From Xenorhabdus bovienii (GTDB lineage: Bacteria > Pseudomonadota > Gammaproteobacteria > Enterobacterales > Enterobacteriaceae), in assembly GCF_024721015.1 (NCBI RefSeq), contig NZ_JANAIF010000013.1, forward strand, positions 1 to 64,000: a DNA stretch of 64,000 bases. The letters are read 5' to 3'. The position numbers and the translations under genes are program-made. Below are positions 1,809 to 38,870 of this stretch, in pieces. The notes under the pieces were generated by a model. It was given only the letters and a program-made list of their open reading frames with translations, had not been told where the DNA came from and ran no database searches. The stretch's first letter is position 1. Every line of letters begins with the position of its first letter.

Positions 1809-1840
1809 TTCACTGCATTAAACCCATCACTAACTGACAA

Positions 1841-1865
1841 AAACCGACATAATGTCGGTTTTTTC
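1841..1865 (+). terminator. Rho-independent terminator of yegH
   Basis: The stem AACCGACA/TGTCGGTT around a TAA loop is followed by a T run, about 35 bases after the yegH stop codon. Confidence 0.85.
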
Positions 1866-2273
1866 AGCTCTGACAAATTTTATTGTATCGTTTTAACCTT
1901 TATTTTTAGATAATTTGTCTGAGCAGCTTCGCAGGTGCAATTGAATGTCTCATTTGACATTGCCTGCAAGATGTCTCTACGAACACACATTCACCCAGTT
2001 TATGACGCAGGCTGATTAAACCAGCGCCATAACTCAAACGGATATCACAAGGGGATGTGTGTCGTGGTAGGTAGTTTTGACACTGACCATTCTCCACGAC
2101 AGGAAATTCACGCACAAGGTGTGCTATCCAGTGTTAATGAGCAGGTTTGATGATTTACTCATGGGCGGAGAAGTCACCACCGCCTTCATATTGCCCCAGG
2201 ATCTTTTCAGCAAAATTTCCTGTGGCTGGGTTAGCAATACGTCTATTTATTGTTGATAAAATGAGGGTTTCAT
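1866..2273. other. Intergenic region upstream of the tail-fibre gene
   Basis: About 400 bases contain no convincing gene. A 69-codon minus-strand frame at 1906-2115 has five cysteines, but I see no ribosome site or family. On the minus strand the segment around 2020-2040 (TTATGGCGCTGGTTTA) resembles a segment on the far side of the tail-fibre gene near 8200-8220, which may be a remnant of the event that placed the gene here. A usable Shine-Dalgarno (TGAGGG) lies just before 2274. Confidence 0.5.
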
Positions 2274-5200
2274 ATGAGTACGAAATATTTTGCATTACTA
2301 ACACATGTAGGCACTAGTAAACTGGAAAATGCTACGACATCGGGGACGAAACTTGAGATTACCCATATGGCCGTTGGTGACGGCGGTGGCAGCTTACCCA
2401 TCCCAAACGTCAATCAATCCAAACTGATTAATGAAAAACATCGCGCTGAAATTGATGTACTGACCATTGATCCCAAAAAACCCAACCATATTATCGCCGA
2501 GCAGGTACTTCCTGAGGGTCAAGGTGGCTGGTGGATCCGTGAAATCGGCCTGTTTGACAAGGATGGAACGCTGGTTGCTGTCGGGAACTGCGCAGATCTC
2601 TACAAGCCTCAATTGCAAGAACAGACCGTTAGCATGGCGCTACCCGTCAGCAACTCAGATTGGCCGGGCTGGGTAAACGAGCTATTTTCTGGTCTGGCAA
2701 CACGCAATTATGTGAGAGAGAAAATTAAAGATCATGCCGAAAGCCGCAATCACCCAGATGCAACATTGAAAGAGAAGGGTCTTGTCACTTTGAGTAACGC
2801 AGTAGATAGTGACAATGAAACTCATGCTGCAACATCAAAAGCGGTGAGAACAACCTATGCTCTGGCGACTAAAGCCTATGACTTGGCTAATGTAACCAAG
2901 CCTACCGACAAGTGGGTACCTTTGACCCGCAAAGTTAATGGCAAAGAGCTGTCATCGGATATCAATATTAATGCAGTTGATGTCGGTACCTATAACAAGG
3001 CTGAGATTGATATTCAAGTCAATAAAGCAGTAGAAACCGCTGGCAGCAAAGTCCCCTTGACCCGCAAAGTTAATGGCAAAGAGTTGTCATCCGATATCAA
3101 TATTAATGCAGTTGATGTCGGTACCTATAACAAGGCTGAGATTGATACTCAAGTCAATAAAGCAGTAGAAACCGCTGACAGCAAGGTTCCCTTGACCCGC
3201 AAAGTCAATGGCAAAGAACTGAAAGAAGATATCGTACTCAGTGCGGCTGATCTCGATACCTATAAGAAAGATGAAATTGATCATAAAGTCGGCAAAGTTG
3301 AAGCTCTGGCTGAAACTGCCAATAAGAATGCAACCTCCGCAATTCAAAGCGCTGACAGTAAAGTGCCATTAATCCGCAAGGTGAATGGTAAAGAACTGTT
3401 AACAGACATTGAACTGACCGCACTTGATGTAAATGCCTACAACAGACCGGAAACCGACGAGCTTATCGGCATAGTTAAAAAACAGGCTGATACTGCTAAC
3501 CAAAATGCGACTGCTGCCCTCCAAAGTGCTGACAGCAAAGTCCCCTTGACCCGCAAGGTAAATAACAAAGAACTGCTAACTGACATTGATCTGAACGCGG
3601 CGGATGTCGGTACTTATAACAAGTCGGAAATTGATGCTCATATCAACAAAGTTGAGCAATTGGCTGATACCGCCAATAAGAATGCGACTTCCGCTATTCA
3701 AAACGCTGACAGCAAAGTGCCATTAACCCGCAAGGTAAATGGCAAAGAACTGTTAACAGATATTGAACTAAACGCGACTGATATCGGTACCTATAACAAG
3801 GTGGAAATCAATGAGCATATCAGCAAAGTTGAGAAGCTAGCTGAAACCGCCAACCAGAATGCCACGACCGCGATCCAAAGTGCCGACAGCAAAGTGCCGT
3901 TAACCCGTAAAGTCAATGGCAAAGAACTGTCAGCCGATATTCAATTGAGCGCGGCGGATGTCGGTGCCTATACCAAAGTAGAAACGGACGACCGTATTAG
4001 TGACGTTAAAACTCAGGTTGATAATGTCAATAAGCTGGCTGAAACCGCCAACCAGAATGCCACGACCGCGATCCAAAGTGCCGACAACAAAGTGCCGTTA
4101 ACCCGTAAAGTCAATGACAAAGAACTGGCAGCCGATATTAAACTGGACGCGGCGGATGTCGGTGCCTATACCAAAGAAGAAACTGACACGCATATCAATA
4201 TCGTCAAAACTCAGGTTGATAATGTCAATAAACTGGCTGAAACCGCCAACCAGAATGCCACGACCGCGATTCAGAATGCCGACAGCAAAGTGCCGTTAAC
4301 CCGTAAAGTCAATGGCAAAGAACTGTCAGCCGATATTCAACTGAGCGCAGCGGATGTCGGTGCCTATAGCCAGAAAGAAACTGACGATCATATCAATATC
4401 GTCAAAACTCAGGTTGATAATGTCAATAAACTGGCTGAAACCGCTAACCTGAACGCCACGACCGCGATTCAGAATGCCGACAGCAAAGTGCCGTTAACCC
4501 GTAAAGTCAATGACAAAGAACTGTCAACCGATATTAAACTGAATGCAGCGGATGTCGGTGCCTATACCAAAGAGGACACTGACGCTCATATCAAAGACGT
4601 CAAGGTTCTGGCGGAAACTGCCAACCAGAACGCCACCACCGCGATCCAACGTGCCGACAGTAAAGTGCCGTTAACCCGTAAAGTTAATGACAAAGAGCTG
4701 TCAGCTGATATTAAACTGAGCGCGGCGGATATCGGTGCCTATAGCCAGAAAGAAACTGACGATCATATCAATAACGTCAAAACTCAGGTTGATAATGTCA
4801 ATAAACTGGCAGAAACTGCCAACCTGAACGCCACCACCGCGATCCAAAGTGCCGACAGCAAAGTGCCGTTAACCCGTAAAGTTAATGACAAAGAGCTGTC
4901 AGCCGATATTAAACTGGGCGCGGCGGATGTCGGTGCTTATACCAAAGAGGAAACTGACGCTCATATCAATAGCGTCAAAACTCAGGTTGATAATGTCAAT
5001 AAGCTGGCGGAAACTGCCAACCAGAGCGCCACCACCGCGATCCAACGTGCTGACAGCAAAGTGCCATTAACCCGTAAAGTCAATGACAAAGAGCTGTCAG
5101 CCGATATTCAACTGAGCGCAGCGGATATCGGTGCCTATACCAAAGTAGAAACTGACGATCATATCAATAACGTCAAGGTTCTGGCGGAAACCGCCAACCA

Positions 5201-8039
5201 GAACGCCACGACCGCGATCCAAAGTGCCGACAGCAAAGTGCCGTTAACCCGTAAAGTTAATGACAAAGAGCTGTCAGTTGATATTAAACTGAATGCGGCG
5301 GATGTCGGTGCCTATACCAAAGAGGACACTGACGCCCATATCAAAGACGTCAAGGTTCTGGCGGAAACTGCCAACCAGAACGCCACCACCGCGATCCAAA
5401 ATGCTGACAGCAAAGTGCCGTTAACCCGTAAAGTTAATGACAAAGAACTGTCAGCCGATATTAAACTGAGCGCGGCGGATATCGGGGCCTATAGCCAGAA
5501 AGAAACTGACGATCATATCAATAACGTCAAAACTCAGGTTGATAATGTCAATAAGCTGGCGGAAACTGCCAACCAGAATGCCACCACCGCGATCCAAAAT
5601 GCCGACAGCAAAGTGCCGTCAACCCGTAAAGTCAATGGCAAAGAACTGTCAGCCGATATTCAACTGAGCGCAGCGGATGTCGGGGCCTATAGCCAGAAAG
5701 AAACTGACGACCGTATTAGTGATGTCAAAACTCAGGTTGATAATGTCAATAAACTGGCTGAAACCGCTAACCTGAACGCCACCACCGCGATCCAAAATGC
5801 CGACAGCAAAGTGCCGTTAACCCGTAAAGTTAATGACAAAGAACTGTCAGCCGATATTAAACTGAATGCGGCGGATGTCGGTGCCTATAGCCAGAAAGAA
5901 ACTGACGATCATATCAATAACGTCAAGGTTCTGGCGGAAACTGCCAACCAGAACGCCACCACCGCGATCCAAAGTGCCGACAGCAAAGTGCCGTTAACCC
6001 GTAAAGTTAATGACAAAGAACTGTCAGCCGATATTCAACTGAGCGCGGCTGATGTCAATGCCTATAGTCAAAAAGAAACTGACGACCGTATTAGTGATGT
6101 CAAAACTCAGGTTGGTAATGTCAATAAGCTGGCGGAAACCGCCAACCAGAACGCTACCACCGCGATTCAGAATGCCGACAACAAAGTGCCATTAACCCGT
6201 AAAGTCAATGACAAAGAACTGTCAGTCGATATTAAACTGGACGCGGCGGATGTCGGTGCCTATACCAAAGTAGAAACTGACACGCATATCAATATCGTCA
6301 AAACTCAGGTTGATAATGTCAATAAACTGGCTGAAACCGCTAACCTGAACGCCACCACCGCGATTCAGAATGCCGACAGCAAAGTGCCGTTAACCCGTAA
6401 GGTCAATGGCAAAGAACTGTCAGCCGATATTCAACTGAGCGCGGCGGATATCGGGGCCTATAGCCAGAAAGAAACTGACGATCATATCAATATCGTCAAA
6501 ACTCAGGTTGACAATGTCAATAAACTGGCTGAAACCGCCAACCAGAATGCCACCACCGCGATTCAAAGTGCCGACAGTAAAGTGCCATTAACCCGTAAAG
6601 TCAATGATAAAGAACTGTCAGTAGACATTAGACTGGGCGCAGCGGATGTCGGTGCCTATACCAAAGAGGACACTGACACGCATATCAATAACGTCAAAGT
6701 TCTGGCTGAAACCGCCAACCAGAATGCCACGACCGCGATCCAAAGTGCCGACAGCAAAGTGCCGTTAACTCGCAAAGTCAATGGCAAAGAGCTGTTAACT
6801 GACATTGAGCTGAGCGCGGCTGATATCGGTACCTATAACAAAACCGAAATCGATGAACGTATCAACAAAGTTGACAAACTGGCTGATACCGCCAATCAAA
6901 ATGCCATTTCTGCCATCCAGAATGCCGACAGCAAAGTGCCAGTAACTCGCAAAGTGAACGGCAAGGAACTGTTAACAGATATTCAACTGACTGCGGATGA
7001 TGTTGGTGCCTATAACAAGAAGGAAACCGATGATCGTATCAACATAGTTGATAAACTCGCTGATACTGCCAATAAGAATGCTATTTCTGCCATTCAAAAT
7101 GTTGACAGCAAAGTGCCATTAACTCGCAAAGTGAACGGCAAAGAACTGTCAACAGATATTGAACTGACCGCGATTGATATCGATGTCTATAATAAAGCAG
7201 ATGTCAACATTCTTTTCGAGGACGTTAAAGAACTGGCAAATAATGCAAATAACAATGCGGATAACAAAGTACCATTAACTCGTACAGTAAATGGTAAGTC
7301 GTTGTTAACAGACATTAAACTGCAAGCATCTGACCTCAATGTCTATAGCAAAGGAGAGGTTGATAGCCGCATCGAAGATGTTAAGGAACTGGCAAATAGC
7401 GCAAATAATAATGCGGATAGCCGAGTGCCGTTAACTCGTACAGTGAATGGCAAGGCGCTGTTATCGGACATTAAACTTATAGCATCTGATGTGGGCGCTT
7501 ATACTAAAGCGGAAACTGATCTCCGTATCAGTAAAGTTGAAGACTTGGCTAAGAGCGCCAATAATAACGCCAGCGGCCGACTGGAGAAAGGCCAAAACGG
7601 GGCGGATATCCCAGACAAGAAAGCGTTTGTAAAAAATCTTGGCCTGTCCGATCTCATTGGGTTAGGTATAGAATCCCGTCGAGTCGGAACAGATGTCACC
7701 ATAATCAAGCTTGGTGATATCATCAAGATCAACGGGCTTGCAATAGCTAGTGAACCGATTGGTGAAGTTAATTCATTCGTTATCGGTGGGATTACATACT
7801 ATACCCACTACTACAAAATACAGCTACCAACCAGCTTGCCAAACGGCATAATTTCATGCCATGCAAGTATTGTCGGGAATAATTTTGATAATCAACAACC
7901 GGGTTACCTTGCTGATGTAAAAACACAGCGAAATAATCCAAATGGCGTGGGAGTGTCGAAAGATACATTGACAATATCTGTCACAACGCCACAGGTTGGC
8001 TGGGTGCCTCACTTCGATTATCAGGTTATAGGGTATTAA
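2274..8039 (+). CDS. Giant phage-type tail fibre protein with 26 repeats
   Basis: This 1,921-residue protein begins like P2-type tail fibres (tail-collar fibre/DUF3751 type: MSTKYFALLTHVG, GGWWIREIGLFD, ADLYKP), which attach to the baseplate. Residues about 213-1767 are 26 head-to-tail copies of a unit starting KVPLTRKVNGKEL and ending in a helical stretch such as LAETANQNATTAIQ. The final ~150 residues begin with EKGQNGADIPDKKAFVKNLGL, the usual link to a gp53-like receptor-binding tip. Such repeats probably form a long trimeric shaft. No other tail, lysis or chaperone gene is nearby and the gene has its own terminator, so it stands alone. It may serve a tailocin (xenorhabdicin-like) or prophage encoded elsewhere, or be a variable tip reservoir; both are inference. 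Confidence 0.88.
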   Translation: MSTKYFALLTHVGTSKLENATTSGTKLEITHMAVGDGGGSLPIPNVNQSKLINEKHRAEIDVLTIDPKKPNHIIAEQVLPEGQGGWWIREIGLFDKDGTLVAVGNCADLYKPQLQEQTVSMALPVSNSDWPGWVNELFSGLATRNYVREKIKDHAESRNHPDATLKEKGLVTLSNAVDSDNETHAATSKAVRTTYALATKAYDLANVTKPTDKWVPLTRKVNGKELSSDININAVDVGTYNKAEIDIQVNKAVETAGSKVPLTRKVNGKELSSDININAVDVGTYNKAEIDTQVNKAVETADSKVPLTRKVNGKELKEDIVLSAADLDTYKKDEIDHKVGKVEALAETANKNATSAIQSADSKVPLIRKVNGKELLTDIELTALDVNAYNRPETDELIGIVKKQADTANQNATAALQSADSKVPLTRKVNNKELLTDIDLNAADVGTYNKSEIDAHINKVEQLADTANKNATSAIQNADSKVPLTRKVNGKELLTDIELNATDIGTYNKVEINEHISKVEKLAETANQNATTAIQSADSKVPLTRKVNGKELSADIQLSAADVGAYTKVETDDRISDVKTQVDNVNKLAETANQNATTAIQSADNKVPLTRKVNDKELAADIKLDAADVGAYTKEETDTHINIVKTQVDNVNKLAETANQNATTAIQNADSKVPLTRKVNGKELSADIQLSAADVGAYSQKETDDHINIVKTQVDNVNKLAETANLNATTAIQNADSKVPLTRKVNDKELSTDIKLNAADVGAYTKEDTDAHIKDVKVLAETANQNATTAIQRADSKVPLTRKVNDKELSADIKLSAADIGAYSQKETDDHINNVKTQVDNVNKLAETANLNATTAIQSADSKVPLTRKVNDKELSADIKLGAADVGAYTKEETDAHINSVKTQVDNVNKLAETANQSATTAIQRADSKVPLTRKVNDKELSADIQLSAADIGAYTKVETDDHINNVKVLAETANQNATTAIQSADSKVPLTRKVNDKELSVDIKLNAADVGAYTKEDTDAHIKDVKVLAETANQNATTAIQNADSKVPLTRKVNDKELSADIKLSAADIGAYSQKETDDHINNVKTQVDNVNKLAETANQNATTAIQNADSKVPSTRKVNGKELSADIQLSAADVGAYSQKETDDRISDVKTQVDNVNKLAETANLNATTAIQNADSKVPLTRKVNDKELSADIKLNAADVGAYSQKETDDHINNVKVLAETANQNATTAIQSADSKVPLTRKVNDKELSADIQLSAADVNAYSQKETDDRISDVKTQVGNVNKLAETANQNATTAIQNADNKVPLTRKVNDKELSVDIKLDAADVGAYTKVETDTHINIVKTQVDNVNKLAETANLNATTAIQNADSKVPLTRKVNGKELSADIQLSAADIGAYSQKETDDHINIVKTQVDNVNKLAETANQNATTAIQSADSKVPLTRKVNDKELSVDIRLGAADVGAYTKEDTDTHINNVKVLAETANQNATTAIQSADSKVPLTRKVNGKELLTDIELSAADIGTYNKTEIDERINKVDKLADTANQNAISAIQNADSKVPVTRKVNGKELLTDIQLTADDVGAYNKKETDDRINIVDKLADTANKNAISAIQNVDSKVPLTRKVNGKELSTDIELTAIDIDVYNKADVNILFEDVKELANNANNNADNKVPLTRTVNGKSLLTDIKLQASDLNVYSKGEVDSRIEDVKELANSANNNADSRVPLTRTVNGKALLSDIKLIASDVGAYTKAETDLRISKVEDLAKSANNNASGRLEKGQNGADIPDKKAFVKNLGLSDLIGLGIESRRVGTDVTIIKLGDIIKINGLAIASEPIGEVNSFVIGGITYYTHYYKIQLPTSLPNGIISCHASIVGNNFDNQQPGYLADVKTQRNNPNGVGVSKDTLTISVTTPQVGWVPHFDYQVIGY
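2910..7574 (+). repeat. Array of 26 in-frame repeats, 45/52/59/66 codons each
   Basis: By hand alignment I count 2 units of 45 residues, then 59- and 66-residue units mixed (11 and 10 copies), and 3 of 52 at the end. These sum to 1,555 residues and fit the span exactly. Central copies are nearly identical in DNA; outer copies are diverged. All length classes differ by multiples of seven residues, and the variation sits in the helical part (KTQVDNVNKLAETA versus KVLAETA). Confidence 0.9.
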
Positions 8040-8111
8040 CATACACTAGAAGTTTAGTCCTACCCCGTTATTTTGTAGTGAAGTCGTACCACTATAGAAT
8101 TGGCATAAATC

Positions 8112-8135
8112 AGGTGATCGCCTCGGCGATCACCT
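8112..8135 (+). terminator. Hairpin terminator after the tail-fibre gene
   Basis: A perfect inverted repeat, AGGTGATCGCC/GGCGATCACCT, lies 72 bases after the stop codon and is followed by TTTA. The T run is short, so termination strength is uncertain. Confidence 0.7.
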
Positions 8136-8239
8136 TTAATATGCGGTAGTTTAGACCCAGTCTACCAGCCAAGCACATTTTCCTTTGCATCTCCCTACAA
8201 ATAAACCAGCACCATAATCTCATTAGGTATGTTGAAAAC

Positions 8240-10099
8240 TCATTTATTCAACAAATTCTCAAATTCCTTACGATCTTCAGCACGACTATTCTGTTCAATC
8301 CAATTTCTGATGGATTGTTTGGCTTTTTCCTGTAATTCATCACTCAGCAATGCTTCAACATTGAGCTTATATTGCAGGTTATCCCAATTACCATAAACCC
8401 GCAGGGGCACTTTTAATTTCTGTAGCTTACGCACAAATTCGTTTTGTTTTCCCCAGCCGCCTGTCAATTGCACCCACAACGACATATCGGTGTTTTGTTT
8501 CAGCAAATTCGCCTTGCCCTGCCCTGTGATATTTAACATGCCCGATATCGCAGAAAGGTTATCAACCTTAAGCTCACCTTGATTCAGTTGCGCTCTGACA
8601 GACATATTTTTTGCTTCGGTAAAATCATCAGTATTCTCTGGCTGATTAACTTGATCAGTCGCCCTCGAAAAAGACTGCTGAATAAGCTGAGGAATGTTCA
8701 ATCCCTCCAAACGCGCATTTTCCAGGCCAATATTCAGATCACCCTGCCAGTAATGGGTAATAGCATATTCGTCATAGCCTTCCCCCAGAAGATCACCATC
8801 CAGCTCAAGTTGCCCACTGAATACCGGTGGCAGAGCCAGAGCCGTCAACAGTGGTTTCAGCTCTATATTTTGCAATAGCGGTTTAGTATGTAATTTAGCT
8901 GGGTTAACCGTGGCATCAATCGTCGTGGGGAGCGCAAAATGCCCACCAAATACATCGCCGCTTAATTTCAAGATTTCTGCCATTCCATCATTATTGACGG
9001 CTTTCAAGGCAAAATTATCAATATCCATGCCCTGATAAATAAACTTATCTGCCACAAACGAAAGATTGGCCTCAAATGCCTTCAGTAAACTCAGATCATA
9101 ATTTGATAACGGTGAAACAGACGTCGCAATCACCGGTTTCAATAAACTGTTTTCAATTCGATAATCATGCCTTGCCTGCAAATCATTTTGCGGTAATGCA
9201 TCCCATCCCAGCAGATTATCTAAATTCAGTTTTGGCGAACTCAGGTTGATGGTGTATTGTGGCTTATTTTGCAAATTAACAGCAATATTGCCGTTAAGTT
9301 CGCTTTCATTTACCGTCAACGCTAGTTTTTGCAGCGAAATGAATGAAGGAGATGATTGGTACGCCAAGCTAACGCTGCCTGTTCCTTTGATACCCTCAGA
9401 CGGTAACCCGACTCCCTTCAGTTGATATTTGAGCGAACTGACATCAGCCGCCAAGCGCTGCGGATAATCAGAGATATCAACAGAAGTATTGAATTCGAAT
9501 GCCAACTCCTGCTGGTTTTTATTGATCTTGCTGCTGAATTCAAGATTGACGTGATCCTGATCCCTACGCTCCATCAGGAAATTGATATCACGGATATTTA
9601 ATTGGGAATCAGTATCGGTTTGCCAGACCAGTAAGCTATCCGCTACCTTGATTCTGGCAATATCCAGTTTCCAACCTTGACCCCCTGCCACCGGATATTG
9701 GATATCACTTTTCGGCGCAATCGGGGCTTCAGCCTGTTTCTGCGGCTGGCTGTCCGGCATAAATCGCAAAACTGCACCTTTCAGCATCACTTCTTTGACT
9801 ACAAACTGGTGGGATAACAGCGGCAGTAATTCGACATCCAGACGCATGTTCTCTGCCACCACCGCAGGGATTTCGGCATCAGGGGCCGTCAGTGATATCT
9901 GCCCAGTCAAAATGCTCAGTTTTGGCCAGATATGCCAGCGCAAATCATCCTGTAACACGAGATGATAACCACTCTTCTTTTGTACCTGTTCGACTATGTA
10001 GCCACGAAAATCATTCGGATTAATCAGCACAACTAACGCAGCTAAACCAGCAACAATGACTACTAACAAAATAACGAGTGTCGTCAACAATCTTTTCAT
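8240..10099 (-). CDS. asmA: AsmA, outer-membrane biogenesis protein
   Basis: This 619-residue protein has one N-terminal membrane anchor (residues about 4-27) followed by a long periplasmic region of the AsmA/TamB-like repeating beta-groove type. E. coli AsmA is 617 residues. Family members are thought to help move phospholipid between inner and outer membrane and affect outer-membrane protein assembly. It is followed in E. coli by dcd and udk, and the same block is kept here on the minus strand (udk, dcd, asmA in transcription order). The start is fixed by the typical MKRLLTTLVILL signal-anchor. Confidence 0.93.
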   Translation of the reverse strand: MKRLLTTLVILLVVIVAGLAALVVLINPNDFRGYIVEQVQKKSGYHLVLQDDLRWHIWPKLSILTGQISLTAPDAEIPAVVAENMRLDVELLPLLSHQFVVKEVMLKGAVLRFMPDSQPQKQAEAPIAPKSDIQYPVAGGQGWKLDIARIKVADSLLVWQTDTDSQLNIRDINFLMERRDQDHVNLEFSSKINKNQQELAFEFNTSVDISDYPQRLAADVSSLKYQLKGVGLPSEGIKGTGSVSLAYQSSPSFISLQKLALTVNESELNGNIAVNLQNKPQYTINLSSPKLNLDNLLGWDALPQNDLQARHDYRIENSLLKPVIATSVSPLSNYDLSLLKAFEANLSFVADKFIYQGMDIDNFALKAVNNDGMAEILKLSGDVFGGHFALPTTIDATVNPAKLHTKPLLQNIELKPLLTALALPPVFSGQLELDGDLLGEGYDEYAITHYWQGDLNIGLENARLEGLNIPQLIQQSFSRATDQVNQPENTDDFTEAKNMSVRAQLNQGELKVDNLSAISGMLNITGQGKANLLKQNTDMSLWVQLTGGWGKQNEFVRKLQKLKVPLRVYGNWDNLQYKLNVEALLSDELQEKAKQSIRNWIEQNSRAEDRKEFENLLNK

Positions 10100-25829: not shown

Positions 25830-26128
25830 TTTTAACAACAAACCCTATTCTATACTCACTGCCTTTCCTACCTGAAAAAACGCGGGTTAAGGGGAATAAA
25901 AATATTGATGATGATTTGATAACGTTATCTGATGAAGATCAAATTTCTTTACCCGAATACTCATGTGATGACCACATACAGACATTACTCCCTTCTTTTA
26001 TATTCCTTCCTTAGAATCGTATTCGAGCTATGGTGAGATTTCCCTGGTCTTGTATTATAAAATCTTAATAGATAACATAGTATTATAAAGCACCATCAAT
26101 GATAATATAATATCAACGAGATTATATA
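25830..26128. promoter_or_regulatory. Island boundary and presumed operator region of the XRE gene
   Basis: No gene is supported here. Base composition drops sharply after moeB. The decamer GTATTATAAA occurs as two direct copies, 26052-26061 and 26080-26089, 28 bases apart and just upstream of the XRE-type regulator, a plausible autoregulatory operator pair (inference). Confidence 0.45.
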
Positions 26129-26782
26129 ATGCAAGAACTGAATGGTAAAAAATCAACTGAAGCTGATGCCTTGTTATCCAACATTGCTAAAAATATTGAT
26201 TTTTTGATGAAAAATAACAACATAGACTCACAGACTCTGAGCAGATTAACAGGTCTCGGAATTGCGACTATCAACAGCCTCAGACGTGGAGTTGGAAACC
26301 CCACTATTGCTACTGTTTCATCAATTGCAGATGTATTTGGTGTCAATGTGGGTGAAATTACCGACGGGAAATTATCTGAATCAAATGGAAATGAAGAAAT
26401 TATCTCCTCAGTACCTCTGGTTAGGTATGATGAATTGGATGGTTACGTATCTGGCAAAATAATCACCAAAAATTTATATAAGCTCAGTATTCAGGATAAT
26501 CATGAAGATTCTCTTTTTGCCGTAGAATTTGGAAATAACCTTTTATTTCCCTATTTTGACAGCAACACCATCGCAATAGTTTCTAAAACCGAGGCAGTTT
26601 GTGACAGTGATGTCGTTCTCGTAAAAATTAAAGATGCTCCCATTTGTTTTAGACAAGTTTTTGTCGGCGAAAGTGGAATTTACTTTTCAATATTAGGCAT
26701 TGAGAACGAACGGAAAACGGTTTTAACGCAGAATTACACAATAATTGGAGTTGTAATTAGGTCGATTAGAAACTTAAAATAG
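26129..26782 (+). CDS. XRE-type regulator with S24-like domain lacking the dyad
   Basis: This 217-residue protein has an N-terminal helix-turn-helix of the Cro/CI class (about 17-76: LSRLTGLGIATINSLRRGVGNP) and a C-terminal region shaped like the LexA/CI S24 domain (about 125-210). Where active members have the nucleophile serine (G-D-S-M-x-P), this one reads GNNLLFP, with Leu138 in its place. The general-base lysine position reads CFRQ (Phe174/Arg175). It should therefore be unable to self-cleave and may instead sense a ligand or act by dimerisation. It heads a tightly packed four-gene run and is the likely regulator of that run. Confidence 0.8.
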   Translation: MQELNGKKSTEADALLSNIAKNIDFLMKNNNIDSQTLSRLTGLGIATINSLRRGVGNPTIATVSSIADVFGVNVGEITDGKLSESNGNEEIISSVPLVRYDELDGYVSGKIITKNLYKLSIQDNHEDSLFAVEFGNNLLFPYFDSNTIAIVSKTEAVCDSDVVLVKIKDAPICFRQVFVGESGIYFSILGIENERKTVLTQNYTIIGVVIRSIRNLK

Positions 26783-26791
26783 GATTTAATT

Positions 26792-27274
26792 GTGGGTAAA
26801 ATAATAAGTTTTCTCAAAAAAATATTCGAAACTCGTTATATATACAGTTTACAAAAATTCGAGCCCATAAAGGAAAACGGATTTTATATCTTGAAAGAGC
26901 TAGGCACCCATACATGCATAAAAGCAAAAGCAGAAGATATTTTTGACGGCGATTTATTATACAATATCAACCCTGAAGATATCATATTCATAGCAAGGTT
27001 TGAAGAATATGATATGAGAGAAAAACAAAAATTCAAAATCATAGAGGAGAGGAGAGATCTTTCATTTATCATACAGAATGCGTATTCTCGCAGACAAATT
27101 CATGGAAAAGAACTGCTTATAGAACAGAATATAGTAGAAAAAATAGATCCGACGAGCCTTGTGAGAATAGCCTATATGTCAGGATTAAAGGATGGAAGGA
27201 AAATTTCTGACGATATCTCAAAAGCTGAAAAAATAAAACCCTCTAAATCTCCAAATTTAAAGGTAATAAAATGA
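26792..27274 (+). CDS. Unknown 160-residue protein of the AT-rich island
   Basis: I do not recognise this protein. It starts with GTG nine bases after the regulator stop, behind AGGA. It is charged and soluble-looking: a basic N-terminus (GKIISFLKKIFETRY), an acidic-hydrophobic middle (AEDIFDGDLLYNINPEDIIFIARFEEYD), and a lysine-rich C-terminus. No membrane segment, cysteine cluster or catalytic motif stands out. Its stop overlaps the start of the VUT gene by four bases, so translation is probably coupled, and its role is likely tied to the transporter or regulator. Confidence 0.7.
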   Translation: MGKIISFLKKIFETRYIYSLQKFEPIKENGFYILKELGTHTCIKAKAEDIFDGDLLYNINPEDIIFIARFEEYDMREKQKFKIIEERRDLSFIIQNAYSRRQIHGKELLIEQNIVEKIDPTSLVRIAYMSGLKDGRKISDDISKAEKIKPSKSPNLKVIK

Positions 27275-27969
27275 CTCAGAATTATCCCACTCATTCAAGG
27301 TTTAAGTATGATTCGTTGTTTGTTTCTCTATCTGTAACAATAATGATAACTTGTGATGTTCTTGTATATAAAACACTAGACTTTTATGATTTTAAAATTA
27401 CATTTAGTGGAATTTTGTTCTCGTTCTACTTTCTTATATCCACGATTCAGACGGAGGTTTATGGATACAGACAAGGCGTAAAAACGGTCTGGATCATGGT
27501 GTTATGCCAATCAATCTTTGTCATGGTTATCTTTGTAGCATCGCATATGCAACCCGAAAACAATCAAATATCAATGAACTTTAAGTCATTATTCGGAGAA
27601 TTTTGGCGTGTTATGGTAGGGACATGGACTTCTGTACCCATTTCTTACTTTATTAACGGATTTGTTATATCCAGCCTGAAAAAAGTCTTTCTTGGCAGGT
27701 TCTTTTTCATCAGGTATCTCATTGCCTCGATGACGACTCAGGCGGCTCTTCTGTTATCAGCTTATCCTATAAGCCTCTCTTCAAAATATAATTTCAATGA
27801 ATTAATAACAATAATCACAACAACATGGTCTTACAAAGTCGTAATGTCCATTATTCTTCTGCCTATAGGGATCATCTTAGCGGATAAGATAAAAAAATTA
27901 GAGTCGGCTGATGTATATGATTGGGGCATATCATACAATCCATTTTTCCTCAGAGGTAATAAAAAATGA
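27271..27969 (+). CDS. VUT-family (YhhQ-like) membrane transporter
   Basis: This 232-residue protein has about six hydrophobic segments. The first pair is followed by STIQTEVYGYRQGVKTVW, the E-x-Y-G pattern seen in the VUT/YhhQ family, and the last by WSYKVVMSIILLPIGIILADKIKK, as in E. coli YhhQ (221 residues). YhhQ imports queuosine precursors (preQ0/preQ1). The present protein is divergent, and the host should have its own yhhQ, so another small heterocyclic substrate is possible. It overlaps both neighbours by four bases (ATGA type). Confidence 0.72.
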   Translation: MTQNYPTHSRFKYDSLFVSLSVTIMITCDVLVYKTLDFYDFKITFSGILFSFYFLISTIQTEVYGYRQGVKTVWIMVLCQSIFVMVIFVASHMQPENNQISMNFKSLFGEFWRVMVGTWTSVPISYFINGFVISSLKKVFLGRFFFIRYLIASMTTQAALLLSAYPISLSSKYNFNELITIITTTWSYKVVMSIILLPIGIILADKIKKLESADVYDWGISYNPFFLRGNKK

Positions 27970-28709
27970 AAGTTGTTAATTTGACAGACATACATCTGAC
28001 CAGAAACAGAGATAAAAAACTATTTGATGTAAATCCTTATGATAACTTTGATTTTGTTTGTGAGGAAATACGTAGAATACAGAATCTTACTGGGATAGAG
28101 TTAATTATCGTATCCGGTGATATTGCAAATGACGGTGATATTGACGCCTACAGATATTTTTTAAATAGAATGGAGTCACTAAAAATACCTTATATTTCCA
28201 TACTCGGCAATCATGATCTCAATAAAAACTTTGAAATAGCACTGGCGGAAGAAAAACCAAAATACATTATTACCTCCCGTGAATATAATAACAATAATTG
28301 GTATATGACTTCCGTCGACACTGTCGTTGAAGGAGAAGATTATGGTTTTATAACTCAAGATAACCTTGCTGAATTAGAAAGAAAAATTATCACAAACAGA
28401 AATTTTAATATCGCCATATTTATGCATCATCATGCCATGCCGGTTGGTACGCCAATTGTAGATAGCTGCATGCTGAACAATGCCAAAGCAGTATTGGAAC
28501 TTTGTGAGAAACATAAGGTTAAATTTATTGGTAGCGGTCATGCGCACACACCACGCATTTGGCATCATAATAATATGACAGCATGTGTTTCTCCTGCTGT
28601 TTCATTTCAATGGTTATCAGGCACCGATACAGTGAAAATATCAAAAGGCTTTGGCTTTAATGTTATAGATTTTGTGCCAGATTTATCTATAACGTCATGT
28701 ATTTATTAA
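27966..28709 (+). CDS. CpdA-like metallophosphoesterase
   Basis: This 247-residue calcineurin-type phosphoesterase keeps every metal ligand motif: D8-x-H10 (LTDIHL), GD at 51-52, GNHD at 81-84, H154-H156 (MHHHAMP) and GHAH at 191-194. The overall line-up, including DVNPYDNF and SPAVSFQW, resembles E. coli CpdA, the class III 3',5'-cAMP phosphodiesterase, so a cyclic nucleotide or other phosphodiester is the likely substrate. It is the last gene of the four-gene run, overlapping the VUT gene by four bases. Confidence 0.85.
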   Translation: MKVVNLTDIHLTRNRDKKLFDVNPYDNFDFVCEEIRRIQNLTGIELIIVSGDIANDGDIDAYRYFLNRMESLKIPYISILGNHDLNKNFEIALAEEKPKYIITSREYNNNNWYMTSVDTVVEGEDYGFITQDNLAELERKIITNRNFNIAIFMHHHAMPVGTPIVDSCMLNNAKAVLELCEKHKVKFIGSGHAHTPRIWHHNNMTACVSPAVSFQWLSGTDTVKISKGFGFNVIDFVPDLSITSCIY

Positions 28710-28731
28710 TCGTCAATAATGGCAAATAAAA

Positions 28732-28753
28732 AAGCGCTTCATATGAGGCGCTT
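28732..28753 (-). terminator. Terminator between the island and ybiT
   Basis: The 9-bp stem AAGCGCTTC/GAGGCGCTT (one G-T pair) has an ATAT loop. The T run is on the minus-strand side, so it best serves ybiT, but it may also stop the island transcript. Confidence 0.75.
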
Positions 28754-28888
28754 ACTTATTGGTTGATACCTGATAGGGTACTTTATCGGGGAATTACATC
28801 CTTGTATTCACTTCAGCCATTCCGCCCCCAATCCTCAAACTGAAAAATAATATTCTCTTTTAAGATTCATGCGGGCAGAAAAAAGGCT

Positions 28889-30484
28889 TTACTCAGCAAT
28901 TCCCTGGCTTCTCAGATACTCATCATAAGTACCTCTGAAATCAACCACTTTGTCGGATTTAATTTCTAAAATACGGCTTGCTAATGAGCTAACAAATGAA
29001 CGGTCATGGGAAACGAAAATCAACGTACCTTGGTAGAGTTCCAGCGCAAGGTTAAGGGATTCGATGGATTCCATATCCAGATGGTTGGTTGGCTCATCCA
29101 TAATCAGAATATTCGGTTTGTGCATCATCAGCTTACCGAACAGCATCCGTCCTTGTTCACCACCGGACAGTACCTTGACCTTCTTCTTGATGTCATCCTG
29201 GCCAAACAACAAGCGTCCCAGCGCACCACGCACGGCCTGCTCATCGTCTCCTTCGCGCTTCCACTGACTCATCCATTCAAATACCGTCAGATCGCAGTCA
29301 AAATCGCTAGCGTGATCCTGCGCATAATAGCCAATCGTATTATTTTCAGACCATTTGATCGTACCGCTGCTCGGCTCTGCTTCACCTACCAGCGTTTTCA
29401 GCAGCGTAGTTTTACCGATGCCGTTTTCACCAATAACCGCCATTTTTTCGCCAACTTCCATCAGCAGGTTCAGGTTCTTAAACAGTGGTTCGTTATCATA
29501 GCCCTTGGTTACACCTTCCAACTCTAGCGCATTACGGAACAGTTTTTTCTCCTGCTCAAAGCGGATATATGGGTTTTGACGGCTGGAAGCTTTCACTTCT
29601 TCTAACTGGATTTTGTCAATCTGACGAGCACGGGACGTTGCCTGCTTAGACTTAGACGCATTGGCACTGAAACGACTAACAAATGACTGTAAATCGGCAA
29701 TCTGTGCCTTTTTCTTGGCGTTGTCTGCCAACTGACGTTCACGAGCCTGCGTCGCCGCAGTCATGTATTCATCATAGTTCCCCGGGAACAGACGCAATGC
29801 GCCATAATCCAGATCTGCCATGTGGGTACAGACCATATTCAGGAAATGGCGGTCATGGGAAATAATAATCATAGTGCTGTTGCGTTCGTTGAGCACTTGT
29901 TCCAGCCAGCGGATAGTATTGATATCCAAGTTGTTGGTTGGCTCATCGAGCAGCAGAACATCAGGATTAGAAAACAGTGCCTGTGCCAGCAAGACACGCA
30001 ATTTCCAACCCGGTGCCACCGCGTTCATCAAACCATAATGCTGATCCACAGGGATACCGACACCGAGCAGCAATTCTCCCGCACGTGCCTCTGCACTATA
30101 GCCATCCATTTCACCGTAGGCGACCTCCAGATCAGCCACACGATAGCCATCTTCTTCGCTCATTTCTGCCAAGGCATAAATGCGGTCACGTTCCTGTTTC
30201 ACTTCCCACAGTTCCGCGTGCCCCATGATGACCGTATCCAGCACCGTGTAGGTTTCGAAAGCGAACTGATCCTGACGCAGCTTACCCAACCGCTCATTGG
30301 GATCAAGACTGACATTACCGGCGGTTGGCGTTAAATCTCCACCCAGGATTTTCATAAAAGTAGACTTACCCGCCCCATTCGCGCCAATCAGACCATAACG
30401 ATTGCCGTTGCCGAATTTGGCAGAAATGTTTTCAAATAGTGGCTTACTGCCAAACTGCATGGTGATGTTGTTTGTACTTAACAC
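28889..30484 (-). CDS. ybiT: ABC-F family ATPase YbiT
   Basis: YbiT is a soluble ABC-F protein with two nucleotide-binding domains and no membrane part; the class acts on ribosomes. Walker A motifs are GANGAGKS (about 35) and GENGIGKTT (about 350). Signature and Walker B regions are visible ([31 protein letters not shown]), with the linker between the domains at about 240-310. The 531-residue length matches E. coli YbiT (530). It uses GTG as start, giving the N-terminus [20 protein letters not shown] expected for the family. Confidence 0.95.
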
Positions 30485-36639: not shown

Positions 36640-36667
36640 TTGACATAGAAGAAGCAAAGAATAGAAT
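36640..36667 (+). promoter_or_regulatory. Sigma-70 promoter of the RiPP-like cassette
   Basis: A consensus -35 box TTGACA (36640-36645) and a -10 box TAGAAT (36662-36667) are separated by 16 bases, about 70 bases before the peptide start codon. Confidence 0.75.
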
Positions 36668-36675
36668 TACCATTG

Positions 36676-36724
36676 TTAGCAAGCATGCTAATATAAATTA
36701 AATCTGATATTTTATTTAATATCA
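36676..36724 (+). promoter_or_regulatory. Two inverted repeats in the cassette leader
   Basis: TTAGCA/TGCTAA (36676-36691) lies just after the -10 box, where a repressor could bind. TGATATT/AATATCA (36705-36724) would form an RNA hairpin four bases before the AGGAG ribosome site. Function is inferred only from position. Confidence 0.5.
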
Positions 36725-36739
36725 AATAGGAGTCAAAAA

Positions 36740-36811
36740 ATGGAAATTGAATTTATTGAAGAATCTGAATCATCTGTAGAAGTTCTTTGCAATAGTCTTG
36801 GATGTCCATAA
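36740..36811 (+). CDS. Putative RiPP precursor peptide, 23 residues
   Basis: This short ORF has an excellent ribosome site (AGGAG, spacing 7) and a near-consensus promoter. The first 15 residues are strongly acidic (MEIEFIEESESSVEV) with no basic residue, like a leader; the last eight are LCNSLGCP, with two cysteines and a C-terminal proline, like a core. It is followed by an mRNA hairpin, an oxygenase gene and an ABC transporter pair, the usual setting of a ribosomally made, modified peptide. I do not recognise the family. An unmodified regulatory or leader peptide is the main alternative. Confidence 0.62.
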   Translation: MEIEFIEESESSVEVLCNSLGCP

Positions 36812-36821
36812 TAAAATATAT

Positions 36822-36845
36822 TACCCTCCTTATTACAGGGGGGTA
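36822..36845 (+). promoter_or_regulatory. mRNA hairpin between peptide and oxygenase genes
   Basis: TACCCTCC pairs with GGGGGGTA (one G-T pair) around an 8-base loop. There is no T run, so it is more likely a stability or partial-termination element that favours peptide expression over the downstream genes. It is conspicuous in such AT-rich DNA. Confidence 0.65.
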
Positions 36846-36860
36846 CATTAGGTGTTCATC

Positions 36861-37538
36861 ATGAATATAAAAGAAATAAACATTTATTTATCTAAATTGA
36901 TATCAAATCCTAAATATTCCATAAAAATGTATGAAAACCCTAATAAGTTCATGGAGATATATCACATATCTCAGTCTAGTCGAGGTATTTTAATAGATTT
37001 TTTTAGGCAAAATGGTAGTAAGTTTGTTAACTCTTCAATCTTACAAAAAACAAAAAGAATGGATGGATTAATAATGTCACTACCAAATTTATACAACTAT
37101 TTGAATAAAGATAATTTTGAATTAGAATTTGAAAAATACCTTATAAATATTGACTTCAATAATGAAGTAAAAAAGAACCCTATTATTGAATCTACTTTCT
37201 TTTGTGAACATATAATTCAAAAGACTGGAGATGACCTTTTGAGAACTATTGCCTTATATGAAAAAGAAAAAAATAATCTATTAAAGGATAAAATTAATTT
37301 TAAATTGAGTGGTGGTGGTGGATTTCTTCCACATCAAGATCATCCAGCGTTTACTAGATTTATTAAAGAAGAAATATTTAACATTATGATCCCAGTTGAT
37401 GATATGAATATAGCAAATGGTTGCCTATATATTTCAAAAATTCCATTTAAAAAGAAATCGATCCCTCATAATAGTGGACAAACATTAAAAAGCGCATATA
37501 AAAATTATCACTGGATTCCTATTCAAGCTAAGTTATGA
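36861..37538 (+). CDS. PhyH-type Fe(II)/2-oxoglutarate oxygenase, truncated
   Basis: The 225-residue product has a helical N-terminal region (about 1-120, with KTKRMDGLIMSLPNLYNYL) that I cannot assign. The second half is of the phytanoyl-CoA dioxygenase kind: the iron-binding HxD is H158-Q-D160 in GGGGFLPHQDHPAF, and NGCLYIS (186-192) is the usual following strand. The protein stops after HWIPIQAKL, exactly where homologues continue with a G-D strand, the distal iron His and the 2-oxoglutarate Arg. No frame downstream supplies them. As written it should be inactive. ATG 36861 has AGG at good spacing; the GTG at 36852 is an alternative. Confidence 0.68.
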   Translation: MNIKEINIYLSKLISNPKYSIKMYENPNKFMEIYHISQSSRGILIDFFRQNGSKFVNSSILQKTKRMDGLIMSLPNLYNYLNKDNFELEFEKYLINIDFNNEVKKNPIIESTFFCEHIIQKTGDDLLRTIALYEKEKNNLLKDKINFKLSGGGGFLPHQDHPAFTRFIKEEIFNIMIPVDDMNIANGCLYISKIPFKKKSIPHNSGQTLKSAYKNYHWIPIQAKL

Positions 37539-37617
37539 ATTAAGATTATTCTCTTTTCTTAGTCTATCTGTTATTTTTATTTTATTTTTTATCTTTAAAC
37601 ATGGGCCATTATATAAT

Positions 37618-38199
37618 ATGGCTTATACTGCCATTATCTTATTGGTGGCTTTGAATTTGTTTATCAGAACTAACGATAATATAAGTCACCGAATAACAGA
37701 AAAATCTTTTTTGCCTTCATTTCTTTTATTCCCTTACTTTATAAATTTATTATACTTTATAAAAAACAAAAAAATATTCACCATAAATTTAATTATCTCA
37801 GTGATACTCTCCTATCTGGTTTGCTATATTGCTTATCAGCAAACACCCGATAGAATAATCTATATAACAATAATATATCTCAGTTTTACACTTTATATAT
37901 TCACCCTATTTTTCTACAATATCATTCACATAGAAAATAAACACCTATCTTATCTTGTTAATTTCTCATCAAAAAGAAAATTTATTTTCATTAATTATAC
38001 TCTGTGTCTTTTATTATTTATAATATGTGGCCTGTATTATATTATAATGACCAAATCAACTGCGATATTAATTTTTTATTATTCAGGAATTTACTCTTTA
38101 ACAGCACTAATAAATTTATCAAGATCGCAATATACAAAATTAATCACCCTGTGTGTTATTGTTTTATTTTCTTGTTTAGGAGGATATATTTATGCTTAA
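37618..38199 (+). CDS. ABC transporter membrane protein, start uncertain
   Basis: This product of 193 or more residues is very hydrophobic, with about seven membrane segments, and overlaps the ATPase gene by eight bases, so it is probably the transporter's membrane subunit. The reading frame is open back to 37489 and encodes another good hydrophobic segment (LRLFSFLSLSVIFILFFIF), but no ATG, GTG or TTG occurs there, and the ATG at 37618 has only a weak ribosome site. The true N-terminus may have been lost in the same event that cut the oxygenase. Confidence 0.62.
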   Translation: MAYTAIILLVALNLFIRTNDNISHRITEKSFLPSFLLFPYFINLLYFIKNKKIFTINLIISVILSYLVCYIAYQQTPDRIIYITIIYLSFTLYIFTLFFYNIIHIENKHLSYLVNFSSKRKFIFINYTLCLLLFIICGLYYIIMTKSTAILIFYYSGIYSLTALINLSRSQYTKLITLCVIVLFSCLGGYIYA

Positions 38200-38821
38200 T
38201 ATTATCGGATTAGATATTTCAGTTGGCCATAAAAAAATATTCTCTGATATTAATTGCCAGTTTGATATTGGGCTAAATCGTATTGTAGGTGTTAATGGTT
38301 CTGGAAAAACCACGTTTCTTTCCTGTATTTCTGGTATTAACAAAATTGATAAAGGGAAAATAAACCTTATTAAAGACAATAAAAATCATCCATTCAAGCT
38401 ACAAAAGCAGGGTTTTTATCTTTCTGATCATATTGATTTTTATCATTTTCTTACCGGACTGGATATCATAAAACTCATTAAACGTTATAAAAAAATAAAT
38501 TGCCATCATCAGTTAGATGATTATTTAACAGGATTTGGCATATCCGGTTATCTGAATACTAAATTTGGTGATATGTCACTGGGAACCAAAAAGAAACTAT
38601 TACTGACATCAGCATTAATGACTGATGTCGATGTTTACATTTTAGATGAACCCACCAATGGCCTTGATGTGACATCAATTAGTTTTCTAAAAGAAAAATT
38701 CAATTCTCTTGCTGACCAGAAAATTATCATTTTCAGTTCACATGACGAAAATTTCTTAAAAGATCTCAACATACATGATTACAAAATACATGAAAACCGT
38801 ATTTCCAAAACGGGAAGTTAG
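38192..38821 (+). CDS. ABC transporter ATPase of the RiPP-like cassette
   Basis: This 209-residue single ABC domain has Walker A GVNGSGKTT (33-41), a variant signature MSLGTKKKL (normally LSGGQ), Walker B VYILDEP followed by TNGLD, and the switch histidine in FSSHDE. Its size fits small two-subunit peptide exporters or immunity pumps. It overlaps the membrane-protein gene by eight bases. Export of, or self-protection against, the cassette peptide is the obvious inference. Confidence 0.85.
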   Translation: MLNIIGLDISVGHKKIFSDINCQFDIGLNRIVGVNGSGKTTFLSCISGINKIDKGKINLIKDNKNHPFKLQKQGFYLSDHIDFYHFLTGLDIIKLIKRYKKINCHHQLDDYLTGFGISGYLNTKFGDMSLGTKKKLLLTSALMTDVDVYILDEPTNGLDVTSISFLKEKFNSLADQKIIIFSSHDENFLKDLNIHDYKIHENRISKTGS

Positions 38822-38834
38822 CATAACTTATCGT

Positions 38835-38870
38835 GGTCAATAACGCTTCGTCACGTTATTGACCTTTTTT
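38835..38870 (+). terminator. Terminator of the cassette, overlapping the dinG stop
   Basis: The stem GGTCAATAACG/CGTTATTGACC with an 8-base loop is followed by T6. The minus-strand dinG stop codon lies inside it. Confidence 0.88.

What the first reader, a model, noticed from the sequence alone, without database searches (positions are those of the whole stretch)
36640..38821. Candidate minimal RiPP (ribosomal peptide) cassette not matching a family I know
Seen directly: a consensus promoter, a 23-codon ORF with a strong ribosome site whose product has an all-acidic first half and a Cys-containing end (LCNSLGCP), a GC-rich mRNA hairpin, a PhyH-type Fe/2-oxoglutarate oxygenase gene, a membrane protein and an ABC ATPase, closed by a terminator. 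Established: RiPP systems pair a short leader-core precursor with a modifying enzyme and an exporter or immunity pump. Inference: the oxygenase would hydroxylate or otherwise modify the CNSLGCP core. The precursor is among the shortest I would accept, and the very low GC and insertion between dps/phnA-like and dinG point to horizontal gain.
Basis: partly seen in the sequence, partly recalled or inferred. Interest (0 to 1): 0.85.

Follow-up and report, generated by a model that had tools for sequence, protein, structure and literature searches.

The report
Broken relic of new RiPP cluster
The short peptide gene is real and belongs to a family of ribosomal peptides also found in Photorhabdus and Legionella relatives, but here most of the genes needed to modify and export the peptide have been deleted, so this copy is almost certainly dead.

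Summary
The cassette, however, is a deletion relic. Five named records (Photorhabdus khanii, P. akhurstii, three Legionellales) hold a larger cluster: precursor, partner B, an MNIO (DUF692) enzyme, a PIG-L-like gene, PhyH, a HEXXH-like and a TauD-like gene. In the window, ORF 36861-37538 is a chimera: about 137 residues of B, without its RRE-like domain, fused to a middle piece of PhyH that ends before the distal His and Arg. The membrane gene is the 3' part of an ABC permease. The MNIO and the other enzyme genes are gone, and the genome shows no MNIO match. Promoter, precursor, hairpin and ATPase look intact. The partner's model matches TglI and NGO1945. By the tests run, the family is not methanobactin or bufferin. 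Paper searches found no description. Product chemistry is inferred.

The parts
36640..36667 (+). promoter-like -35/-10 (TTGACA-16-TAGAAT)
   Evidence: TTGACA at a similar distance in 4 of 4 loci
36740..36811 (+). RiPP precursor, 23 aa, MEIEFIEESESSVEVLCNSLGCP; looks intact
   Evidence: 9 of 9 aligned peptides share I3 E4 E7 E8 V13 E14 V15 C17 N18 S19 C22 P23; excess of synonymous changes
36822..36845 (+). hairpin between precursor and next gene, -14.0 kcal/mol
   Evidence: 6 consensus pairs, 5 of them formed in 4 of 4 loci, 0 compensatory changes
36861..37273 (+). N-terminal fragment of MNIO partner protein B (about 137 of 285 aa); C-terminal RRE-like domain lost
   Evidence: 74% nucleotide identity to P. 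khanii; 95 of 137 residues identical; fold of whole B
37274..37538 (+). internal PhyH (Fe/2-oxoglutarate oxygenase) fragment fused in frame to B; HxD present, distal His and Arg lost
37533..38199 (+). 3' part of ABC permease gene (about 221 of about 375 codons); no ATG in frame before 37618
38192..38821 (+). ABC transporter ATPase, 209 aa, whole ORF
   Evidence: PF00005; 58% identity to the P. khanii cluster ATPase
38835..38864 (+). terminator-like hairpin

Best explanation
The window holds the remains of a large RiPP gene cluster of the MNIO type. Two internal losses, both keeping gene order, removed about 2.8 kb and about 3.5 kb measured on the intact P. khanii copy: the end of partner B, the MNIO, the PIG-L/glycosyltransferase-like gene, both ends of PhyH, the aminotransferase, the HEXXH-like gene, the TauD-like oxygenase and the first part of the permease. 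In intact copies the pathway most likely works as follows (inferred): the acidic leader IExxEE...VEV is held by the RRE-like domain of B; the MNIO oxidises one or both cysteines of the CNSxxCP core; the three other Fe enzymes hydroxylate side chains; the GT2/PIG-L-like protein adds and deacetylates an amino sugar; the ABC transporter exports the product or protects the producer. In the window the peptide may still be transcribed, but it cannot be processed by its own pathway.
For: Shown: blastn maps window 36720-37273, 37279-37531 and 38252-38748 in order onto the P. khanii cluster, and tblastn maps 37534-38196 to residues 153-375 of its permease. The P. khanii cluster runs precursor, B, MNIO, PIG-L/GT2-like, PhyH, aminotransferase, H270, TauD, permease, ATPase. 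P. akhurstii has the same order up to TauD, where the held DNA ends. Three Legionellales loci have B, MNIO, PIG-L-like, PhyH, H270, TauD and an ABC ATPase plus the same peptide. 9 of 9 peptides keep CNSxxCP. The B model (pLDDT 79.7) matches TglI (Z 15.8) and NGO1945 (Z 12.8); the next entry is at Z 6.1. The own genome has no MNIO match at E<=1e-5; 8 of 30 genomes of the genus have one. A second decayed copy in G1093 keeps the precursor, a broken B and pieces of B, MNIO and ATPase.
Against: The chimeric ORF is open for 225 codons and could have gained some other role. The precursor, promoter and ATPase are intact, so some use cannot be excluded. The genome is a 517-contig draft, so an MNIO could be missing from it. 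No other genome of the same species was available. That the losses were two single events is inferred, and the order of events is unknown. The PIG-L and GT2 matches are below Pfam's cut-offs. The chemistry of the intact pathway is untested.
Confidence: 0.92

Rival explanations
1. Functional minimal RiPP cassette: the chimeric oxygenase modifies the peptide and the truncated permease plus ATPase exports it.
For: All ORFs are open; the HxD half of the iron site is kept; the precursor and ATPase are intact.
Against: Distal His and Arg are lost, while these are invariant in 5 of 5 intact PhyH rows; the RRE-like domain of B is lost; no MNIO match in the genome; the permease lacks its first ~150 residues and has no ATG, GTG or TTG start listed before 37618.
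Confidence: 0.04
2. The short ORF is only a regulatory leader peptide whose translation controls the hairpin and the genes behind it (attenuation).
For: A hairpin directly follows the ORF in 4 of 4 loci.
Against: In 9 of 9 loci the conserved part is a Cys-containing C-terminus, and in the 7 loci not known to be decayed the ORF lies upstream of an MNIO gene and a B relative (the fold of B was tested on one protein), the usual RiPP setting. The hairpin may well tune expression in addition.
Confidence: 0.03
3. An addition to the best explanation, not an alternative to it: the transporter is kept as an immunity system after loss of biosynthesis.
For: Permease and ATPase without biosynthetic genes are whole in G016 and at another site of P. 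khanii.
Against: In the window the permease is truncated; elsewhere in the genus it is frameshifted in G022, interrupted in G017 and a remnant in G028.
Confidence: 0.3

Closest known systems
MNIO (DUF692) RiPPs with RRE-type partner: pearlin TglHI (PDB 8hi7/8hci) and PME-type 2 partners (PMC12452194)
   Same: MNIO plus a partner with an N-terminal helical domain and a C-terminal RRE-like domain; small Cys-containing precursor without a signal peptide
   Different: No lanthipeptide-dehydratase/PEARL-like family among the 9 non-precursor proteins of the P. khanii cluster scanned with Pfam; acidic 23-25 aa precursor with CNSxxCP; PIG-L/GT2-like, PhyH, HEXXH-like and TauD genes; partner gene lies before the MNIO gene
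Methanobactin, incl. Group V of P. luminescens TT01 and V. caribbenthicus (PMC3621798)
   Same: Very short precursor (23-35 aa in that paper); LC at the core start as in the M. trichosporium peptide; an aminotransferase in some clusters; Group V also has an ORF between precursor and MNIO
   Different: Leader acidic instead of Lys/Arg-rich; CNS instead of C(G/A/S)(S/T); two Cys where Group V has one; ABC instead of MATE; MbnB model far below its cut-off
Bufferins / captophorins (PMC12452194, PMC13097082)
   Same: The MNIO is closest to the BufB/HvfB models by score
   Different: Below those cut-offs; no Pfam DUF2063 hit for the partner; precursor of 23-25 aa, too short for a signal peptide followed by Cys repeats
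HEXXH plus MNIO clusters of Pseudomonas, pfl (PMC12636437)
   Same: A HEXXH-type enzyme and an MNIO in one cluster
   Different: There the MNIO is fused to a nitroreductase; the precursor and other genes differ

Membership tests
MNIO RiPP (class level), intact relatives | MNIO enzyme gene (PF05114) | tested here: met
   P. khanii gene E=3.1e-79; homologues in 5 of 5 named cluster loci
MNIO RiPP (class level), intact relatives | Partner protein with helical domain plus RRE-like domain | tested here: met
   One model (P. khanii B, 5-row alignment): 8hi7_A Z 15.8, 8hci_A 15.4, 3dee 12.8; next entry 6.1
MNIO RiPP (class level), intact relatives | Short precursor with conserved core next to the enzyme | tested here: met
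   9 of 9 peptides, the window's included, keep C17 N18 S19 C22 P23
MNIO RiPP (class level), intact relatives | Modified peptide product | not testable with these tools
   needs expression and mass spectrometry
MNIO RiPP, the window copy itself | MNIO and full partner present | tested here: not met
   No MNIO match in the own draft genome at E<=1e-5; B cut to ~137 aa
Methanobactin | MbnB equivalog (TIGR04159, cut-off 325 bits) | tested here: not met
   44.4 bits for P. khanii, 37 bits for F. gormanii
Methanobactin | Lys/Arg-rich leader and C(G/A/S)(S/T) core motif (PMC3621798 passages) | tested here: not met
   Leaders acidic; core CNS in 9 of 9
Bufferin / captophorin | BufB or HvfB equivalog cut-offs (310, 360 bits) | tested here: not met
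   230.7 and 214.3 bits; 228.1 and 224.3
Bufferin / captophorin | DUF2063 signature in the partner | tested here: not met
   No such Pfam match at E<=1 for P. khanii B, although the fold is related
Pearlin (tgl) | PEARL amide ligase (TglB type) | tested here: inconclusive
   None among the 9 non-precursor gene products of the P. khanii cluster scanned with Pfam; no directed search was made
PhyH 2OG-Fe(II) oxygenase (window ORF) | HxD, distal His and 2OG-binding Arg (roles recalled from the family) | tested here: not met
   HQD present; the protein ends before the columns of H194 and R205, invariant in 5 of 5 intact rows

The most novel reading that the evidence does not exclude
The CNSxxCP clusters define an undescribed MNIO RiPP family with a nearly fixed core shared by insect symbionts and Legionellaceae: a product of about 8 residues whose cysteines are remodelled by an MNIO, hydroxylated by up to three further iron enzymes, and decorated with a glucosamine-type sugar by a GT2/PIG-L-like protein. 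That would be the first amino-sugar-bearing MNIO RiPP known to me (recalled). The near-fixed core would mean a conserved, specific target.
Probability: 0.33. Interest if true: 0.82.

Novelty: new variant of a known kind. Interest (0 to 1): 0.62.

Why it matters
The window copy is only a wreck, but its 23-codon ORF leads to a RiPP family that I could not find described: one short precursor with an almost invariant core kept between Enterobacterales and Legionellales, whose MNIO proteins are only about 46-50% identical to that of P. khanii. The P. khanii cluster combines an MNIO with three other iron-enzyme types and sugar-type genes, so it is a good place to look for new peptide chemistry, and the precursor is short enough for direct in vitro tests. 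It also shows that intact precursor genes can outlive their clusters (the window and G1093), a trap for short-ORF genome mining.

Tried and rejected
The first genome-contig scan with the chimera alone found nothing, probably because its exact patterns were drawn from two unrelated genes; the profile scan solved it. Viral contigs: nothing. Plasmids: no DNA match, no match to either precursor or to B, only weak PhyH matches in 6 records and two weak HEXXH-annotated Acinetobacter matches to H270. Phages: nothing with the B fragment. Order search with the chimera: 5 of 394 at E<=0.01, the four besides the own genome weak; phylum search: 6 of 398 at E<=0.001, the five others matching only the PhyH part. 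Solved-structure sequence searches gave nothing useful for the chimera, H270 or B.

B: the model from 2 sequences was useless (pLDDT 44.6); hhalign of B against BufC-type proteins of the Photorhabdus genus and against a partner-like family of the window's genus gave no support, nor did a pairwise comparison. Only the 5-sequence model showed the relation. Two dN/dS lines for the PhyH part used a wrong frame and were dropped; they were redone as raw proportions (pS 0.54-0.60, pN 0.146-0.148). For B against P. akhurstii, dS was saturated, so no ratio is given.

Considered and rejected: methanobactin and bufferin membership (see the tests; pearlin is left inconclusive); the hairpin as evidence by covariation (0 compensatory changes); the promoter and terminator matches by themselves (no clear excess over shuffles). 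VIA-align listed no further MNIO-partner entry beyond 8hi7, 8hci and 3dee among the chains compared; this excludes nothing.

Full report
WHAT IS THERE. A TTGACA-16-TAGAAT site starts at 36640, a 23-codon ORF with AGGAG before it lies at 36740-36811, a hairpin at 36822-36845, an ORF at 36861-37538 with a PhyH match (E=3.7e-7), a membrane frame ending at 38199, an ABC ATPase at 38192-38821 and a terminator-like hairpin at 38835-38864. GC is about 0.25 here and about 0.4-0.5 around it.

THE SAME SITE IN THE GENUS. The window's genome is one of 30 held for its genus. No call names the genus; it is not Photorhabdus, which is a different group, and I take it to be Xenorhabdus. A phnA match was found in 28 of 30 genomes. 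In the 28 loci around it, and in longer stretches taken for 12 of those genomes, only the window's own has pieces of B or PhyH, and none has a precursor match other than the window's or an MNIO match at E<=0.01. A permease match (E<=0.001) occurs in 7 of 30 genomes. At this site it is whole, with ATPase, in G016, frameshifted in G022, interrupted in G017 by an insertion that looks like an IS by eye, and a remnant in G028 and G018; G020 keeps an ATPase piece; G005's match lies at a contig edge. The whole G016 permease has 373 residues; the window's frame aligns only to its last ~223.

THE INTACT CLUSTER. The best two, Photorhabdus khanii NC19 (L061) and P. akhurstii DSM 15138 (L062), begin with nearly the same 23-aa ORF. 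The P. khanii order is precursor; B (285 aa, no family); MNIO (PF05114, 3.1e-79); a 412-aa protein with PIG-L and GT2 matches, both below Pfam's cut-offs (23.1 against 28.2 bits; 21.7 against 23.3); PhyH (1e-21); class I/II aminotransferase; a 270-aa protein (H270, no family) with HQxxH; a TauD-type oxygenase (8.7e-20); permease (375 aa, no family); ATPase. Two weak plasmid relatives of H270 are annotated as HEXXH putative peptide modification proteins. Of the 80 loci, 5 carry the gene set: the two Photorhabdus, Fluoribacter gormanii, Legionella shakespearei and a Legionellales MAG; the other 75 match PhyH, one of them also the aminotransferase, and nothing else of the set at E<=1e-6. An ABC ATPase match lies in the three Legionellales loci and behind the P. 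khanii locus; the held P. akhurstii DNA ends at TauD, so its transporter was not seen. The Legionellales loci show no aminotransferase match. In the MAG the PIG-L-like and GT2-like parts are separate ORFs; in the two Legionellaceae loci only the PIG-L-like part is seen, at the edge of the held DNA, and there are a further acetyltransferase-like gene and a larger ABC transporter. B relatives occur in 3 of 392 genomes of the wider family, the own included, 2 of 12 of the Photorhabdus genus and 4 of 143 of the family of L. shakespearei; these sets overlap.

THE PRECURSOR IS REAL. I found nine loci with the start of B: the window, P. khanii, P. akhurstii, G1093, the MAG, F. gormanii, L. shakespearei, G1252 and G1250. 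All nine have the peptide (two of the nine are identical); they align without internal gaps, and I3, E4, E7, E8, V13, E14, V15, C17, N18, S19, C22 and P23 are invariant (peptides). Of the changed codons, 5 of 8 are synonymous against P. khanii and 6 of 11 against P. akhurstii; dN/dS 0.115 and 0.157. The chance of such a synonymous share is about 0.01 in each comparison by a simple binomial; there are only 23 codons. The degenerate core pattern hits 19 of 183 loci, each a copy of one of these peptides, and 0 of 100 shuffles of the window.

THE REST IS WRECKAGE. Window 36720-37273 matches the P. khanii precursor and B start (74%), 37279-37531 a middle part of PhyH (77%) and 38252-38748 the ATPase (70%), in the same order; 37534-38196 matches permease residues 153-375. 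The joined ORF ends at PIQA-KL; the intact PhyH of P. khanii goes on with NAGDLLIFSSFLLHMSK and an Arg-rich stretch, which hold the distal His and the Arg (roles recalled). B loses its C-terminal half, which in the model is the RRE-like part. No MNIO match was found in the own genome at E<=1e-5; 8 of 30 genomes of the genus have one. G1093, of the Photorhabdus genus, is a second wreck: the precursor intact, B with a stop and cut off after ~79 codons, and on another contig the B end, 82 residues of MNIO and ATPase pieces. P. khanii has a third remnant: a TauD end with whole permease and ATPase beside genes that I recognise by eye as relA and mazG; the P. akhurstii cluster sits beside the same two genes.

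HOW THE INTACT SYSTEM PROBABLY WORKS. Shown: the P. khanii B model has the fold of MNIO partners (TglI Z 15.8 over 254 residues, rmsd 4.3; NGO1945 Z 12.8; next entry 6.1). MNIO, PhyH, H270 and TauD keep invariant acidic, His and Asn residues in the rows compared (7, 5, 5 and 5 rows). Inferred: leader binding by B, cysteine oxidation by the MNIO (MNIOs act often on Cys: PMC13097082 and PMC11002830 passages), hydroxylations, amino-sugar addition, export or immunity.

KNOWN OR NEW. By cut-offs the MNIO is none of the NCBIfam equivalogs it matches. The P. luminescens Group V operon of PMC3621798 (passages) has a single-Cys precursor and a MATE exporter. The MNIO landscape paper PMC12452194 (abstract and outline, sections 17 and 18, term searches of the main text) does not mention Photorhabdus or PIG-L, and mentions Legionella only for bufferins. 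PMC9177418 (4 passages) does not name this cluster in what I saw. PMC12636437 was seen in passages; other papers only in listings. Paper searches gave no description that I could see in listings or passages; one search found no paper with the core strings. Most subscription papers and all supplements were out of reach.

VERDICT. The finding's core claim, a RiPP precursor, is right; its functional claim for this copy is wrong. The interest lies in the intact family.

Noticed in passing
L176 (G029) 2682-9293, L177 (G022) 410-7181: A different MNIO cluster in the window's genus: 41-aa candidate precursor ending LACLSCS in both, with AMP-ligase, cupin-like, partner-like and DegT-like genes in L176 (names by eye), MNIO (41-42% to P. 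khanii) and an ABC ATPase; a similar MNIO and partner also in G017 and G014.
   Followed up: partly
L039 1854-2051, and in L040, L046, L042, L043, L045: A family of ~65-aa Cys-containing proteins that look secreted (MKTSLTLCTAILLL...) at the phnA-dinG site in several species; one member scanned, no Pfam match.
   Followed up: partly
L044 7350-11910, L045 1719-5010, L042 and L043: The phnA-dinG interval is a hotspot: NRPS-like genes with a transposase in G013, a 529-aa protein in G014, a cupin-like gene in G010 and G029 (names by eye).
   Followed up: no
window 26001-29000: Second low-GC island (GC about 0.34) with four co-directed ORFs.
   Followed up: no
L163, L164 (Photorhabdus genus): Further distant MNIO-like genes; in L163 two ORFs side by side look MNIO-like by eye; possible other RiPP clusters.
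   Followed up: no
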